Both the position numbers and the translations under genes were made by a program. From Acidobacteriota bacterium (GTDB lineage: Bacteria > Acidobacteriota > Terriglobia > Terriglobales > Acidobacteriaceae), in NCBI GenBank assembly GCA_019351975.1, contig JABBOG010000042.1:1-32913 (forward strand): a stretch of DNA of 32,913 nt, in the 5' to 3' direction. Positions 11,786 through 32,913 of the stretch are shown piece after piece (positions within the stretch are counted from its first letter, which is position 1; each line of letters opens with the position of its first letter). The notes under the pieces were generated by a model. That model was not told where the DNA came from. It saw nothing but the letters and a program-made list of their open reading frames with translations, and made no database searches.

Positions 11786-11852
11786 GCCGGTCTGTCATCC
11801 TGAGCGTAGTTTGGCGCGGCTTCTTGCAACAAACTCAGTCGAAGGACCCCGA
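11786..11852. repeat. Intergenic copy of the 'tgtcatcctgagc' repeat
   Basis: Lies in the 295-bp gap between the convergent SCO and hemA genes, which contains no believable gene. It begins GGTCTGTCATCCTGAGCG and ends near GTCGAAGGACCC, a pattern I associate with dispersed repeats in Acidobacteriota genomes. Its translated form (CHPERS...) resembles the in-gene copies at 16529, 17548 and 32614. A 13-base stretch, GCCGGTCTGTCAT, occurs at 11769-11781 and again at 11786-11798, so the left end is duplicated. The short frame at 11745-11936 is only a reading of this repeat. Confidence 0.6.
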
Positions 11853-14506: not shown

Positions 14507-17434
14507 ATGCCCGTTGACACCCCCGCACAATCCGCCGACGACGTCCTCACCCCCGTCATGCGGCAGCATCGCGCCGCCAAAGACGCCCACCCCGACGCCC
14601 TCATCTTCTTCCGCCTCGGCGACTTCTACGAGCTCTTCTACGAAGACGCCATCATCGCCGCGCGCGAACTCCAGCTCACCCTCACATCCCGCGACAAAAC
14701 CCGCTCCGTACCCATGTGCGGCGTCCCCTATCACTCCGCCGGCAGCTACCTCCAGCGTCTCCTCCGCAAAGGCTACCGCGTTGCCCTCTGCGAGCAGATG
14801 GAAGATCCCAGGACCACCAAAACCATCGTCCGCCGCGAAGTCACCCGCGTCCTCACCCCCGGCACCTCCGTCGACGCCGCACTCGACGCCAGCGAAAGCC
14901 AGTGGCTCGCCAGCATCGCCGCCGTCGGCCCCTCCGCAGCCTCCACCGTCGGCGTAGCCTCCATCGATCTCTCCACCGGCGACTTCCGCTCCACCGAGTT
15001 CTCCGGCCCATCCGCCTGGCCCCTCGCCCTCGACGAGCTCGCACGCATGCGCCCCGCCGAACTCATCTACCCCCGCAACAGCGCTTCCAACTTCGGCCCG
15101 ACATCCCAGAACCTCCGCCAGGGCGTTCTCCGCGAATCCCCCCCATCGAAACCCCACCCAGACGCCGACACCGAAGACCCCACCCCCTTCGACCTCACTG
15201 CCGCCCGCACCGAGGTCGAAGACTGGGCCTTCACCGAAGACTACGCCCTTCCCCTGCTCCGCCAGCAGCTCCGCCTCCACTCCCTCGACGGCCTCGGTCT
15301 CTCCGGCCACAACGCCGCCGCCACCGCCGCCGGAGCCATCGTCCACTACCTCCGCGCCACCAAGCAAGGTGCCCTCGACCACCTCGACACCCTCCGCTTC
15401 TACGAACGCCGCGACTGCCTCGAACTCGACGCCGTCAGCGTCCGCAACCTCGAACTCGTCGACCCGCTCTTCTCCGCCGAAGGCCCCCAGACCACCCTCT
15501 TCTGGACCCTCGACGCCTGCTGCACCCCCATGGGCAAGCGCCTCCTCCGCGCGCAACTGCTTCGCCCCATGCAGTCCCTCGCAGCCATCAACGCGCGCCT
15601 CGACGCCGTAGCCATCGCCGCCGCCGACATCCGCCGCCGCGAAACCCTTCGCCGCTCCATGGACGGCGTCCTCGACCTCGAGCGCCTCCTCGGCCGCGTC
15701 GCCATGGAGACCGCCGGTCCCCGCGAGCTCGTCGCCCTCGGCTCCACACTCTCGCGCCTCCCAGGCCTTCGCTCCGCCGCCGCCGACCTCACCGCAAGCC
15801 ATCCCGCCTGTCGCTGGCACCATCTCTCCACCACCTTCGACACCCTCGCCGATCTCCACGAACGCATCACCCGCACCCTCGCCGACGAACCTCCCGTCAA
15901 CCTCGCCGACGGCAACGTCATCCGCACCGGCCTCGACCCCGAACTCGACGACCTCCGCGCCCTCTCCTCCAACGGCCGCCAGCTCGTCGCCAACATCGAG
16001 ACCCGCGAGCGCGAACGCACCGGCATCGCCTCGCTCAAAGTCCGCTTCAATTCCGTCTTCGGCTACTACCTCGAAGTCACCAAAGCCAACGCCAAATCCG
16101 TCCCGCCCGACTACGAGCGCAAGCAAACCCTCGTCAACGCCGAACGCTTCACCACCCCCGAGCTCAAAGATCTCGAGGCTAAGATTTTGACCGCTCAAGA
16201 GCGCTCCGCCGACATCGAGCGCCGCATCTTCGCCGAGCTCCGCCGCGACATCCTCGCCAACGCCACGCGCATCCGCGAGTCCTCGCGCCACATCGCCGAA
16301 ATCGACCTTCTCGCCAACTTCGCCCATATCGCCGCCCTTCGCGGCTGGGTGCGCCCGCAGGTCAACGACTCCGGCACCCTCGAATTCCTCGCCGCCCGCC
16401 ATCCCGTCGTCGAGCGCCGCCTCGAAGACCAGGGCACCGGCCGCTTCATCCCCAACAGCCTGCACCTCTGCGCCCCCAGTTCGACATCCACAGAAGACCT
16501 GTCCTCTCAACCGAGTCCCTCTCAAGACCTGTCATCTCGACCGGAGCGCAGCGCAGTGGAGAGACCTGCAGCTCCTCTCTCAGCCACCAACAAACCGGGT
16601 GCCCCACCCATGGCGGAGTCTCATCACGACATGAGTGGGCCGCGACACAAACTCGCAGTAACGCCCTCGCCCTCACTCCTCCTCATCACCGGCCCCAACA
16701 TGGGTGGCAAATCCACCTATCTCCGCCAGGCTGCGCTGCTCACCATCATGGCCCAATGCGGCTGCTTCGTCCCCGCCGAGCGCATGACCCTCGGCCTCGT
16801 CGACCGCATCTATACCCGCATCGGCGCGTCCGACAACGTAGCCCGCGGCCGGTCTACTTTTATGGTCGAGATGACCGAAACCGCCGCCATTCTCAACACC
16901 GCCACCGCCCGCTCCCTCGTCCTGCTCGACGAAATGGGCCGAGGCACCGCCACCTACGACGGCCTCTCCCTCGCCTGGGCCGCCGTCGAGCACCTCCACG
17001 ACACCATCGGCGCGCGCACCCTCTTCGCCACCCACTACCACGAACTCACCCTCCTCGCCAACCGCCTCCCGCACCTCCGCAACCTCCGCGTCACTGTTCG
17101 CGAAACCCCCACCGGCATCGTCTTCCTCCACACCGTCGAACCCGGCGCGGCCAGCAAGAGCTACGGCATCGAAGTCGCCCGCCTCGCCGGTCTTCCTACC
17201 TCCGTCATCGCCCGCGCCCGCGACGTCCTCAAGCTCCACGAGCGCGCCGAGTCCCAGCAGGTCCGCGAATCCGCTCCCGCCACGCGCGCCGCCAGCGTCC
17301 AGATGACCATGTTCACACCGCTCTCCCAGCGCATCGTCGACCGCATCGAGCAGACCGATATCGACGGCCTCACCCCCCGCGAAGCCCTCCATCTCCTCGC
17401 CGACCTCCAGCGCGAACTCAAAGGCGGCGCATGA
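14507..17434 (+). CDS. mutS: DNA mismatch repair protein MutS with repeat-derived insertion
   Basis: Recognises base mismatches and small loops and, through its ATPase, starts repair with MutL. At 975 residues it exceeds the usual ~850-880. The mismatch-binding Phe-x-Glu is F40-Y-E42 in GDFYELF. Walker A (GPNMGGKST) is at about 729-737, Walker B is LVLLDEMGRGT, and FATHYHEL follows. Part of the extra length is a Ser/Pro-rich insertion (about residues 652-722) between RFIPNSLHL and LLLITGPNMGG, where normal MutS has only a few residues. It consists of two repeat elements read in frame. A second low-complexity stretch sits near residues 205-225. Frames on both sides are intact, so the protein is probably functional. 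The stop overlaps anmK. Confidence 0.96.
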   Translation: MPVDTPAQSADDVLTPVMRQHRAAKDAHPDALIFFRLGDFYELFYEDAIIAARELQLTLTSRDKTRSVPMCGVPYHSAGSYLQRLLRKGYRVALCEQMEDPRTTKTIVRREVTRVLTPGTSVDAALDASESQWLASIAAVGPSAASTVGVASIDLSTGDFRSTEFSGPSAWPLALDELARMRPAELIYPRNSASNFGPTSQNLRQGVLRESPPSKPHPDADTEDPTPFDLTAARTEVEDWAFTEDYALPLLRQQLRLHSLDGLGLSGHNAAATAAGAIVHYLRATKQGALDHLDTLRFYERRDCLELDAVSVRNLELVDPLFSAEGPQTTLFWTLDACCTPMGKRLLRAQLLRPMQSLAAINARLDAVAIAAADIRRRETLRRSMDGVLDLERLLGRVAMETAGPRELVALGSTLSRLPGLRSAAADLTASHPACRWHHLSTTFDTLADLHERITRTLADEPPVNLADGNVIRTGLDPELDDLRALSSNGRQLVANIETRERERTGIASLKVRFNSVFGYYLEVTKANAKSVPPDYERKQTLVNAERFTTPELKDLEAKILTAQERSADIERRIFAELRRDILANATRIRESSRHIAEIDLLANFAHIAALRGWVRPQVNDSGTLEFLAARHPVVERRLEDQGTGRFIPNSLHLCAPSSTSTEDLSSQPSPSQDLSSRPERSAVERPAAPLSATNKPGAPPMAESHHDMSGPRHKLAVTPSPSLLLITGPNMGGKSTYLRQAALLTIMAQCGCFVPAERMTLGLVDRIYTRIGASDNVARGRSTFMVEMTETAAILNTATARSLVLLDEMGRGTATYDGLSLAWAAVEHLHDTIGARTLFATHYHELTLLANRLPHLRNLRVTVRETPTGIVFLHTVEPGAASKSYGIEVARLAGLPTSVIARARDVLKLHERAESQQVRESAPATRAASVQMTMFTPLSQRIVDRIEQTDIDGLTPREALHLLADLQRELKGGA
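16529..16576 (+). repeat. In-gene repeat copy within mutS
   Basis: Matches 17548-17595 in anmK at 46 of 48 bases, the first 40 being identical. Both are read in the same frame as LSSRPERSAVERP. A partial, degraded second copy lies just upstream at 16496-16517 (AGACCTGTCCTCTCAACCGA compared with AGACCTGTCATCTCGACCGG), so the left end has been duplicated here. Confidence 0.85.
16597..16639 (+). repeat. Hairpin repeat within mutS
   Basis: Starts GGGTGCCCCACCCAT and ends ATGAGTGGG. Arms 16603-16611 and 16631-16639 pair at 8 of 9 positions around a 19-base loop. It shares the lead GGGTGCCCCA with the intergenic hairpin at 29141-29181, suggesting one dispersed family. Here it is translated as part of the MutS insertion (GAPPMAESHHDMSGP). 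Confidence 0.6.
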
Positions 17435-18687
17435 CCACCACCCACCCAAAGTCCCTCATCGTCGCCGGCGTCATGTCCGGCACCTCCGCCGACGGCATCG
17501 ACGTAGCTCTCTGCCGCATCTCTCCCTCTGCTCTCCCCAATCCAAATCTGTCATCTCGACCGGAGCGCAGCGCAGTGGAGAGACCTGTAGCTTCTTCCGC
17601 TCCCCCCAAACTAAAACTCCTAGGCCACCGCCACTTCCCCTACGACAAAAAACTCCGCACCAAAATCCTCTCCATCGCCGCCGGCAACCCCACCACCGCC
17701 GCCGAACTCACCCAGCTCTCCTGGCACCTCGGCAGCCTCTACGCCCACGCCATCGCCGCCACCGCTAGCGACCTCGACCTCAAGCCCCACCTCGCCGCCA
17801 TCCACGGCCAAACCATCTACCACCAGGCGCTCGCCGCCACCTTCCTCGGTAAATCCCTCCGCTGCACCTCGCAAATCGGCGAACCCTCCGTCATCGCCGA
17901 ACGCCTCCACATCCCCGTCATCTCCGACTTCCGCCCCGCCGACCTCGCCGCCGGTGGCCAGGGCGCACCCCTCGTCCCCATCCTCGACTTCTGCCGCTTC
18001 CGCCACCCTACCCGCAACCGCCTGCTCCTCAACCTCGGCGGCATCGCCAACATCACCGCCCTCCCCGCCGCCTGCACCACCGCCAACATCCTCGCCTTCG
18101 ACACCGGCCCCGCCAATATGCTCATCGACGCCCTCATGCAGCGCCTCTACAACCGCCGCTTCGACACCAACGGTGCCGTCGCCGCGCGCGGCCAGGTCCT
18201 CCAGCACGTCCTCGAAGCCTTCCTCTCCGAGCCATACTTCGCCGCCCCACCCCCCAAATCCTGCGGTCGCGAAGAGTTCGGCCCCGCCTTCGCCGACCGC
18301 TTCCTCAAGCGCTGCAAGTCCGCCTCCACCCCGGACATCATCGCCACCGCCACCGCTCTCACCGCCGCCACTCTCCTCGACGCCTACCGCCGCTTCTGCT
18401 GGCCCCACCTCGGCCAGCACGCACCCCTCGCCCGCGCGACCGAACTCTTCGCCGCCGGCGGCGGAGCCAACAACGCCACCCTCATGCGCATGCTCGCCGG
18501 CCACCTCAAGCCCCTCGGCATCAAGGTCTCCACCACCGCCGCCACCGGCCTCCCCGTAGAAGCCAAAGAAGCCGCCGCCTTCGCCCTCCTCGGCTGGCTC
18601 ACCTGGCACCGCCTCCCCGGCAACATCCCCAGCGCCACCGGCGCCACCCACCCAGCCATCCTCGGCAAGGTCACTTATGCTTCTTGA
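17431..18687 (+). CDS. anmK: Anhydro-N-acetylmuramic acid kinase
   Basis: Hydrolyses and phosphorylates 1,6-anhydro-MurNAc to MurNAc-6-phosphate in cell-wall recycling. The ATG overlaps the mutS stop (ATGA), giving 418 residues against ~370-390 for the family. The ATP-binding GVMSGTSADGIDVAL lies at residues 14-27. IHGQTIYH, the VISDFRPADLAAGGQGAPLVP block, NLGGIANIT, FDTGPANMLID and the C-terminal AAGGGANN follow in order. The excess is partly an insertion at about residues 36-60 that reads LSSRPERSAVERPVASS, the same peptide as in the upstream MutS. It falls between the first two strands, in a likely surface loop. The co-transcribed peptide-binding lipoprotein further on fits a murein-recycling theme. 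Confidence 0.94.
   Translation: MTTTHPKSLIVAGVMSGTSADGIDVALCRISPSALPNPNLSSRPERSAVERPVASSAPPKLKLLGHRHFPYDKKLRTKILSIAAGNPTTAAELTQLSWHLGSLYAHAIAATASDLDLKPHLAAIHGQTIYHQALAATFLGKSLRCTSQIGEPSVIAERLHIPVISDFRPADLAAGGQGAPLVPILDFCRFRHPTRNRLLLNLGGIANITALPAACTTANILAFDTGPANMLIDALMQRLYNRRFDTNGAVAARGQVLQHVLEAFLSEPYFAAPPPKSCGREEFGPAFADRFLKRCKSASTPDIIATATALTAATLLDAYRRFCWPHLGQHAPLARATELFAAGGGANNATLMRMLAGHLKPLGIKVSTTAATGLPVEAKEAAAFALLGWLTWHRLPGNIPSATGATHPAILGKVTYAS
17548..17595 (+). repeat. In-gene repeat copy within anmK
   Basis: Near-identical direct repeat of 16529-16576 (46 of 48 bases), 1,019 bp downstream. It begins at a codon boundary of anmK, as the other copy does in mutS, so both give the same peptide. 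Confidence 0.85.
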
Positions 18688-31493: not shown

Positions 31494-32913
31494 ATGACTC
31501 GCCTGTCACCCCTGCTGCTCGCCGCTCTCCTCGCCGCGCCCGCGCTCTCCCAAACCCCGCCCCTCGCGCCAGCGCAGCCCTTCACCGATCCCGCCAACCT
31601 CCGCGGCGAGCGCGTCTCTCCCTCCGACGGCCACGAGCTTCCCATCGATACATCCGAAGCCCAATCCGCCCTCGGCCTCGCCCAGCTCCTCCGCCGCCTC
31701 AACACCCGCGCCTCCATCCTCAACATCGTCGCTCACCCCGACGACGAAGACGGCGGCATGCTCACCCTCTACTCCCGCGGCCTCGGCGCACGCGTCGCCG
31801 ACCTCTCCCTCACCCGCGGCGAAGGCGGCCAGAACGCCGTCACCGGCGACTTCGAAGACGCCCTCGGCCTCCTCCGCACCCAGGAACTCCTCTCCTCCGA
31901 CCGCTATCCCGGCATCTCCCAACTCTTCGGTACTGAAGTCGACTTCGGTTTCTCCAAAACCAAGCAGGAAGCCTTCGAAAAATGGGGCCACCAGCGCGTC
32001 CTCTACGACGCCGTCCGCGCCATCCGCCTCTTCCGCCCCCTCGTCATCACCGCCACCTTCGTCGGCTCCGTCACCGACGGCCACGGCCAGCACCAGGTCT
32101 CCGGCGAGATCGCCCAGGAAGCCTTCCTCGCCGCCGCCGACCCCACCATCTTCCCCGATATGATCGCCCAGGGCATCCTCCCCTGGCAGGCCCTCCGTGT
32201 CTACGCACGCGTCCCCTCCGGTGCCATCTCCTCCAAAGGCCTCTTCGACTACGCTACCAATCAGTACACTCCCGCACGCTTCGTCAACTACGTCACCGGC
32301 CAGATCACCACCACCGTCCCCTCCACCGACGTCACCGTCCACGAAGGCACCACCGACCCACTCCTCACCGCCGCCGCCGCCAACCCCGCCGACCTCGCTC
32401 TCCTCTCCCTCCCCGGCCAGCCCCTCAATCCCAGCACCCCCCTCAGCTACGTCCAGTTCGCCCGCATAGGCCTCGGCCTCCAGCGCACCCAGATCACCCG
32501 CGACCTCCGCCTACCACCCCCCGGCCCCTTCGACGTCAGCTACCACCTCTACGGCTCCTGCACCCCCAACTCGACCCAGTCCAACCACACCCAACCCACG
32601 CCCCTGCCAAAATACTGTCATCCTGAGCAGGCGCAGCGCCCCGAAGGACCCGCCACACCCTCCGCAGCCGCACACCCTCCCGCACCTTTCAGCCCCAACC
32701 CTCAACCCAAACCCGCTACCCCTGCAACATCCGTCGCCGCAGGCGGTGAACCTGCTTCCTACGTCGCCGCACCCATGTCCGTTCACTTCCGCGCCACCGC
32801 TCCACCCTCCGCTCAAAACCCCGCCCTCGCCCACGACCCCTCCTTCTTCACCGGCATCGACACGTCCATCCAAAGCATCGCCGCCCTCGCCCCCGCCGCC
32901 TTCCCGCCCAACG
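31494..32913 (+). CDS. PIG-L family deacetylase, exported (3' partial)
   Basis: An LmbE/PIG-L zinc deacetylase, probably removing acetyl groups from an N-acetylated sugar. The start MTRLSPLLLAALLAAPALSQ is a signal peptide, placing it outside the cytoplasm. The zinc motif is AHPDDE at residues 80-85, followed by LTRGEGGQN, a block typical of the large secreted members. The frame is open for 473 codons and runs past the window end, so the C-terminal part is missing. Near residues 374-386 it reads KYCHPEQAQRPEG, an in-frame copy of the dispersed repeat, within a Pro/Ser/Thr-rich stretch. It diverges from rapZ across 121 bp. No strong ribosome-binding site is seen. Confidence 0.88.
   Translation, partial: MTRLSPLLLAALLAAPALSQTPPLAPAQPFTDPANLRGERVSPSDGHELPIDTSEAQSALGLAQLLRRLNTRASILNIVAHPDDEDGGMLTLYSRGLGARVADLSLTRGEGGQNAVTGDFEDALGLLRTQELLSSDRYPGISQLFGTEVDFGFSKTKQEAFEKWGHQRVLYDAVRAIRLFRPLVITATFVGSVTDGHGQHQVSGEIAQEAFLAAADPTIFPDMIAQGILPWQALRVYARVPSGAISSKGLFDYATNQYTPARFVNYVTGQITTTVPSTDVTVHEGTTDPLLTAAAANPADLALLSLPGQPLNPSTPLSYVQFARIGLGLQRTQITRDLRLPPPGPFDVSYHLYGSCTPNSTQSNHTQPTPLPKYCHPEQAQRPEGPATPSAAAHPPAPFSPNPQPKPATPATSVAAGGEPASYVAAPMSVHFRATAPPSAQNPALAHDPSFFTGIDTSIQSIAALAPAAFPPN
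32614..32651 (+). repeat. In-gene repeat copy within the PIG-L gene
   Basis: Contains CTGTCATCCTGAGC and GCCCCGAAGGACCC, the same ends as the intergenic copy at 11793, separated by a shorter middle. It is translated as CHPEQAQRPEGP without breaking the frame. Confidence 0.65.

What the first reader, a model, noticed from the sequence alone, without database searches (positions are those of the whole stretch)
16529..17595. Same 48-bp repeat inserted in frame into two unrelated adjacent genes
Bases 16529-16576 in mutS and 17548-17595 in anmK match at 46 of 48 positions and are read in the same frame, adding LSSRPERSAVERP to both proteins. In MutS it lies just before Walker A; in AnmK just after the ATP-binding GTSADGID loop. 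Family members elsewhere lack these segments. This resembles the palindromic elements known inside Rickettsia genes: a mobile or copied repeat that tolerates, or prefers, a coding phase giving a soluble peptide. A repeat preserving frame in enzymes this essential to fitness is unusual.
Basis: partly seen in the sequence, partly recalled or inferred. Interest (0 to 1): 0.8.

Follow-up and report, generated by a model that had tools for sequence, protein, structure and literature searches.

The report
Strand-locked DNA hairpins inside protein genes
A short hairpin-forming DNA repeat in a soil bacterium has landed in two enzyme genes without breaking their reading frame; the copies examined nearly all point the same way relative to DNA replication, which hints at how such repeats spread.

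Summary
In detail: 46 of 48 bases match, same strand, same frame, in mutS and anmK of a Granulicella-like genome. The 37-bp core is one length class of a hairpin repeat with about 36 copies in this genome, close to the published CGTC/TGTC-tagged REPs, which are already known inside genes.

New here: (1) orientation follows the replication strand: 34 of 34 tabulated copies in this genome, 49 of 49 sampled in relative G007 and 27 of 28 in named contigs lie on the C-rich strand, identified as lagging in G007 by dnaA, rpsL and tuf. Relative G002 instead carries mostly inverted pairs. (2) MutS of two relatives (a third by resemblance) carries other repeats at the same place; all lie on the C-rich strand, so they read antisense where mutS sits on the other strand. 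(3) In genes, 17 of 20 cores are 1 mod 3 long, against 12 of 52 between genes; 41 of 43 are sense; one sense frame is never used. (4) The apical stem changes by compensation.

Best reading: a REP-like hairpin, probably inserted through single-stranded lagging-strand template, with selection keeping frame-compatible copies in disordered loops. No mobilising enzyme was identified. The peptide is probably neutral.

The parts
14507..17434 (+). mutS (MutS, 975 aa), host gene of the first copy
   Evidence: ORF; Pfam MutS I-V
17431..18687 (+). anmK (anhydro-N-acetylmuramic acid kinase, 418 aa), host gene of the second copy, overlapping mutS by 4 bases
   Evidence: sequence; Pfam AnmK E 1.3e-93
16530..16566 (+). 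hairpin repeat, short-apex class, 37-bp core, in mutS
   Evidence: genome copies
17549..17585 (+). hairpin repeat, short-apex class, 37-bp core, in anmK
   Evidence: variant at the same site in relative G013
16500..16515 (+). possible degenerate left half of the same repeat just upstream in mutS (TGTCCTCTCAACCGAG)
   Evidence: read by eye; not scored by a search
16598..16639 (+). copy of a second hairpin repeat family (GGTGCCCCA...) in the same MutS loop, read in frame as GAPPMAESHHDMS
   Evidence: end read by eye
11793..11806 (+). left half of the sister repeat family, TGTCATCCTGAGCG
32616..32629 (+). left half of the sister family with one mismatch, inside the gene call at 31494-32912

Best explanation
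The 48-bp repeat is a short length class of a mobile or formerly mobile REP-like hairpin: outer stem GTC-A-TCTC / GAGA-GAC with a bulged A, an internal loop, and a variable apex that in the long class is itself a hairpin. Shown: it is dispersed over this genome and relatives; in the long class the apical stem changes by compensation; the copies examined in two genomes and in named contigs lie with the TGTC strand on the C-rich strand (lagging in G007), with one exception; inside genes they are nearly restricted to lengths and frames that leave the protein readable. Inferred: copies enter as single strands into the exposed lagging-strand template at the fork, as IS200/IS605-type HUH transposases do. 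Insertion is indifferent to genes; selection removes copies that break a frame, so frame-compatible copies persist in disordered loops such as the MutS loop before the ATPase core and the AnmK beta-hairpin loop. The added peptide is most likely neutral.
For: Orientation: 34 of 34 tabulated rows in the window genome and 2 of 2 further true copies; 49 of 49 in 20 chosen G007 stretches; 27 of 28 in named contigs; sister family TGTCATCCTGAGCG 16 of 16 and 20 of 20 in fetched stretches. Lagging identity: in G007 dnaA (Pfam-confirmed, about 2.139-2.141 Mb) lies where orientation flips between 2.133 and 2.161 Mb, and rpsL, fusA and tuf (Pfam-confirmed) and a 16S motif lie on the G-rich strand. Same-site test: MutS repeats are sense in G000, where the coding strand is C-rich, and antisense in G016 and G017 (and, by resemblance of the head only, G030), where it is G-rich. 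Length: 17 of 20 in-gene against 12 of 52 intergenic cores are 1 mod 3, P = 2e-6. Phases 0/33/8; 41 sense to 2 antisense. Structure: covariation score 0.274 against 0.107 shuffled; apical helix 91.9% paired with double changes at 6 of 8 pairs. Loop: AnmK residues 36-54 have pLDDT below 50 between two strands. The genome has seven Y1/HUH transposase-like hits, two of them flanked on both sides by the GGTGCCCCA family, which follows nearly the same strand rule.
Against: None of the seven Y1_Tnp loci (up to 1.5 kb either side) carries this repeat family, so no enzyme is tied to it. No exact empty site or target duplication could be read: the G007-G015 pair compared differs by about 12-14%. The 55-nt pieces around the two window copies fold no better than shuffles. 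In the covariation test two of five measures (pairs with a change on both sides, further pair types) do not exceed the shuffles. The flanking outer stem is not supported. In G002 the sampled copies are mostly inverted pairs or palindromes and skew is weak, so the strand rule does not show there.
Confidence: 0.66

Rival explanations
1. The orientation is selected, not made at insertion: the hairpins are polar sites acting in replication, segregation or transcription termination, and wrong-way copies are removed.
For: Orientation is near absolute in three sequence families in the stretches examined; apical stems are kept by compensation.
Against: About 36 copies in 3.9 Mb is sparse; orientation holds inside coding sequences too; exact left-half counts run from 112 in G007 to 0 in three of the same-genus genomes sampled; G002 copies are mostly symmetric pairs.
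Confidence: 0.2
2. The repeat is kept for its peptide: a useful linker or signal added to enzymes, especially DNA repair enzymes.
For: Of 26 scanned host proteins 7 are DNA replication or repair enzymes (MutS, UvrD, Pol I, Pol IV, Lhr in two genomes, a MutS-family protein) against 1 of 40 control genes (P 0.005).
Against: Two different frames are used; other sequences, at least one a different repeat family, occupy the same loops in orthologues; G016 lacks all five copies compared; length filtering explains the frame.
Confidence: 0.07
3. The segments are ancestral parts of MutS and AnmK, or assembly artefacts.
For: AnmK of G013 has a segment at the same site.
Against: Absent from 28 of 28 MutS relatives and 22 of 23 AnmK relatives read; other genomes carry in-gene copies in other genes.
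Confidence: 0.02
4. An add-on question: genes carry mostly sense copies because leading-strand genes are more essential and tolerate fewer insertions, not because the antisense peptides are harmful. Compatible with the best explanation.
For: Antisense copies would fall in leading-strand genes, where rpsL, fusA and tuf lie in G007.
Against: The GGTGCCCCA family is antisense in 6 of 23 in-gene copies on the C-rich strand (three of the six in one gene) and in MutS of G016 and G017; 41:2 against 17:6 gives P 0.018.
Confidence: 0.35

Closest known systems
CGTC/TGTC-tagged REP super-family (Di Nocera et al. 2013, PMC3733652; outline, passages, CGTC-family section, genome-distribution section and first part of the discussion read)
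   Same: TGTC head, short hairpin, dispersed, copies inside genes including DNA repair genes, no dedicated transposase known
   Different: 7-bp stem with a bulged A and a variable apex instead of an 8-9 bp stem with a 4-5 base loop; no AT pair at the start of the stem; mostly single copies in G000 and G007; strict strand orientation, which the parts read do not report
Rickettsia palindromic elements (from recall, and as mentioned in PMC3733652)
   Same: palindromic repeats inside protein genes, kept in frame
   Different: different phylum and sequence; orientation tied to the replication strand here
REPINs and RAYTs (Bertels and Rainey 2011, PMC3116915; passages read)
   Same: hairpin repeats; inverted pairs in relative G002; Y1 transposase-like genes in the genome
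   Different: no GTAG tag; not found beside a Y1 gene; single units rather than doublets in G000 and G007
IS200/IS605 single-strand transposition (as summarised in PMC6006769; passages and one section read)
   Same: hairpins and a lagging-strand orientation
   Different: no transposase gene inside the element, cores of about 37-54 bp; circular intermediate not testable here

Membership tests
CGTC-tagged REP | CGTC or TGTC motif at one end | tested here: met
   TGTC invariant in 34 aligned long-class copies; these were picked with at most one mismatch to a pattern that starts TGTC, and single copies start CGTC
CGTC-tagged REP | tag unpaired, stem starts with complementary AT | tested here: not met
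   GTC and GAC are complementary in 34 of 34, invariant pairs and so no covariation proof; the A after GTC has no partner in this structure
CGTC-tagged REP | stem 8-9 bp, loop 4-5 bases | tested here: not met
   7 pairs around a bulge, then an internal loop and an apical hairpin in the long class
CGTC-tagged REP | 3-base tail, mostly CCA | tested here: not met
   copies end GACC followed by T or C
CGTC-tagged REP | mostly head-to-head dimers | tested here: inconclusive
   mostly single in G000 and G007, mostly inverted pairs in the G002 stretches
RAYT-mobilised REP | GTAG tag | tested here: not met
   element ends read TGTC and GACC
RAYT-mobilised REP | copies flank a RAYT gene | tested here: not met
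   0 of 7 Y1_Tnp loci in the window's genome; not tested in other genomes. The GGTGCCCCA family does flank L012 and L014
Rickettsia palindromic elements | in-frame copies inside unrelated protein genes | tested here: met
   41 sense in-gene copies over three data sets
Rickettsia palindromic elements | Rickettsia sequence families | not tested
   no comparison with RPE sequences was made; the exact 37-bp core was found at 18 loci, all titled Granulicella or Acidobacteria
IS200/IS605-type single-strand elements | orientation set by the lagging strand | tested here: met
   not seen in G002
IS200/IS605-type single-strand elements | HUH transposase acting on the ends | not testable with these tools
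   candidates exist but none is linked to this family

The most novel reading that the evidence does not exclude
A class of REP-like hairpins spreads only through single-stranded lagging-strand template, giving near-absolute strand polarity, with a fast-changing apex whose length class decides whether a copy can live inside a gene. Several unrelated families share this route, so lagging-strand genes, DNA repair genes among them, continually gain expendable loops.
Probability: 0.4. Interest if true: 0.78.

Novelty: new variant of a known kind. Interest (0 to 1): 0.6.

Why it matters
How REP sequences spread is an open question. Strict strand polarity in a strongly skewed genome is a signature of the step at which they enter DNA, and it can be tested in cultured Granulicella. 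The length classes also give a natural measure of selection on reading frame, and the MutS loop shows how enzymes acquire disordered segments.

Tried and rejected
A codon-usage gene finder was trained first and dropped, because the strong strand skew made it call one strand only. It was replaced by an amino-acid and local-composition scorer, which recovers mutS and anmK but is home-made and unsure of starts (it starts anmK inside the repeat, so the reading frame was extended by script). Single-strand folding of the pieces around the two window copies gave no excess stability. An outer flanking stem suggested by G007 copies is not convincing: 3.83 pairs of 6 against 3.58 (sd 0.11) for shuffled partners in G007, no excess at that register in the other two sets, 53.5% paired. 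A Y1 transposase beside the repeat was sought and not found. Comparison of five in-gene G007 copies with G015 and G016 gave no readable target duplication. The MutS model is poor (mean pLDDT 62.7) and is used only to say that residues 657-719 are not predicted as ordered. The functional-peptide reading was set aside because two frames and other repeats fill the same loops. Four encoded peptide strings were searched in papers: 0 papers.

Full report
WHAT IS THERE. The two segments are real: 46 of 48 positions match, and the longest exact repeat in the window is 40 bases against 14-16 in 20 shuffled windows. Both are sense and in the same frame in mutS and anmK. The window lies in a 3.9-Mb, 132-contig genome. 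The exact 37-mer occurs at 18 loci of a one-genome-per-species collection, all titled Granulicella or other Acidobacteria, with the window's own records possibly left out, so I call the host Granulicella-like.

THE FAMILY. A search with 111 bases around the mutS copy gives 58 matching pieces at E up to 10. The left half with up to 2 mismatches gives 37 hits against 0 for the reversed control; one (C56) lacks the rest of the element and is discarded, and the rest include a few half copies. Most full copies share TGTCATCTCGACCGNAG and CGCAGYGGAGAGACC; the stretch between is short (cgcag), intermediate, or a 21-base hairpin such as ccaaacggcttcatcgtttgg. On 34 copies of the 53-base class (13 own, 20 G007, 1 named) the outer stem is 99.6% paired and almost invariant, which by itself says nothing about pairing, while the apical helix is 91.9% paired with changes on both sides at 6 of 8 pairs. 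For the whole structure the covariation score is 0.274 against 0.107 (sd 0.011) shuffled and at most 0.129 for slid versions; cells paired and cells with double changes also exceed every shuffle, but the number of pairs with a double change (10 against 8.8) and of further pair types (19 against 22.5) do not. The copies are related, so these are not probabilities. Of 299 genomes drawn from the class, 43 hold the exact 14-base left half, most with one or a few hits; three same-genus genomes in that draw have none and G002 has 70. G007 has 112 exact hits.

ORIENTATION. GC skew is about 0.3 in most fetched stretches of this genome. In it, 34 of 34 tabulated rows (32 full copies, one half copy, one sister-family copy) lie with the TGTC strand on the locally C-rich strand; two further true copies agree, and the discarded C56 match does not. 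In G007, 49 of 49 copies in 20 stretches agree, one of them where skew is nearly nil (-0.04). The stretches were chosen from a list of the first 100 of 112 exact hits so as to touch every orientation block in it, exceptions included. In named contigs 27 of 28 left-half matches agree, one with weak skew (-0.05); the exception, in L114, lies close to a copy in the opposite direction. The core has 13 G and 11 C, so its composition does not favour the C-rich strand. The sister family agrees 16 of 16 and 20 of 20 in fetched stretches, 36 of the roughly 62 genome hits. GGTGCCCCA agrees in 24 of 26 own matches and in 37 of 39 over three data sets, which overlap with those 26 (16 of 17, 13 of 13, 8 of 9). 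G002 differs: in 20 stretches picked mostly for close pairs I found 15 inverted pairs of 144-188 bp and 6 palindromes of 29-56 bp, 23 to 21 by strand, with weak skew in most; single copies exist there too. In G007 orientation flips between 2.133 and 2.161 Mb, where dnaA lies at about 2.139-2.141 Mb, and rpsL, fusA and tuf lie on the G-rich strand, as does a 16S motif where skew is weak. With + strand C-rich to the left and G-rich to the right of dnaA, G-rich is leading and C-rich lagging. G007 has further orientation blocks that follow local skew, so it is not a simple two-arm map, and the lagging identity in G000 is by analogy.

INSIDE GENES. With home-made gene calls, 43 of 110 left-half matches lie in genes: own 11 of 34, G007 13 of 49, named 19 of 27. 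A few are partial copies beside a full one. Of the 43, 41 are sense and 2 antisense (one a half copy), while coding bases on the C-rich and G-rich strands are 104:61, 124:92 and 63:34 kb, so about 61% sense would be expected (P 3e-7). Phases of the 41 sense copies are 0, 33 and 8, so one sense frame, open in the core, is never used. Core lengths are 1 mod 3 in 17 of 20 in-gene and 12 of 52 intergenic copies of own plus G007 (P = 2e-6). With the named set, fetched by the 37-mer and so biased to that length, they are 33 of 36 and 18 of 60. Only 97 matches whose two ends were recognised entered the length count, one of them antisense. The simplest reading is insertion without regard to genes followed by loss of frame-breaking copies; it assumes that flanking bases added with the core are constant in number, which no empty site has yet shown.

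SAME SITES, OTHER REPEATS. Of 28 relatives whose MutS segment was read, none has this repeat. G016 and G017 have a GGTGCCCCA-family segment at the same place before Walker A; G030 has a segment beginning like a TGTCATCCC repeat, judged by its head alone. All three read antisense, and their MutS coding strands are G-rich (0.26, 0.36, 0.10); in the window genome the strand is C-rich (-0.34) and both repeats read sense. Orientation thus follows the strand composition, not the gene. AnmK of G013 has a variant with an apex 12 bases longer at the same site; the other 22 of 23 AnmK relatives read have none. Five in-gene copies of G007 were compared with G015 and G016: two are shared with G015, one is absent, and in two G015 has other sequence in place, once a GGTGCCCCA-family repeat and once a GGGATTAG-rich segment whose motif recurs in other fetched loci. 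G016 lacks all five.

STRUCTURE. In a predicted AnmK model (mean pLDDT 85.9, 19 sequences) residues 36-54 lie below 50 between two beta strands; the only other internal stretch below 50 is 170-179. The element encodes residues 40-52. The MutS model is weak (62.7), with residues 657-719 among many stretches below 50. No solved structure was consulted.

HOSTS. One search gives 33 sense host genes; 26 were scanned with Pfam (own 7 of 10, G007 9 of 10, named 10 of 13; the seven left out were my choice, mainly cut or weak calls). Seven of the 26 are DNA replication or repair enzymes in the strict sense (MutS, UvrD, Pol I, Pol IV, Lhr in two genomes, a MutS-family protein), against 1 of 40 control genes drawn from 59 on the same strand with at least 400 residues (Fisher P 0.005). 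Controls are shorter (median 499 against 630), hosts had no length floor, the two Lhr are probably orthologues, and I sorted the classes after seeing the names. The one control hit, a LigD-like ligase, itself carries a GGTGCCCCA copy. A like tendency is reported for REPs of other species in PMC3733652.

WHAT IS KNOWN. REPs inside genes, repair genes included, are in print (PMC3733652). Lagging-strand insertion is documented for two IS200/IS605 members according to PMC6006769 (passages and one section). REPINs: passages of PMC3116915. RepRanger (PMC12306157, passages) reports REPs on both strands of E. coli and lists a Granulicella species. My searches for a strand rule of REP-like repeats and for repeats in Acidobacteria or Granulicella showed none in their listings. 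A paper on the orientation of bacterial transposable elements, cited in PMC6006769, is not held, so absence from print is not established.

VERDICT. The finding is real. Its kind is known; the strand rule and the length classes are the new part; single-strand insertion and the enzyme remain inferred.

Noticed in passing
window 16598-16639: A second, unrelated hairpin repeat (GGTGCCCCA family) sits in the same MutS loop, in frame.
   Followed up: yes
whole window; other fetched stretches of the genome: Very strong GC skew (about 0.3) independent of gene direction; several relatives with few or no copies have weak skew in the mutS region.
   Followed up: partly
L012, L014: Y1 transposase-like genes flanked on both sides by GGTGCCCCA-family hairpins, a likely RAYT with its repeat.
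   Followed up: partly
L252-L271 (G002): The same repeat ends occur as inverted pairs of 144-188 bp and as palindromes of 29-56 bp, like REPINs or small inverted-repeat elements.
   Followed up: partly
L168 7314 and 7881 (DNA polymerase I gene of G007): At these two sites the relative G015 carries other sequence in place of this repeat: a GGTGCCCCA-family repeat and a GGGATTAG-rich segment.
   Followed up: partly
L040 1346-4306: A LigD-like DNA ligase gene carries a GGTGCCCCA-family copy in frame.
   Followed up: no
G007 chromosome: Repeat orientation and local skew switch together at many points, suggesting inversions or assembly joins.
   Followed up: partly
L015: Another Y1 transposase-like gene has a different repeat on both sides, matching several other loci of the genome.
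   Followed up: no
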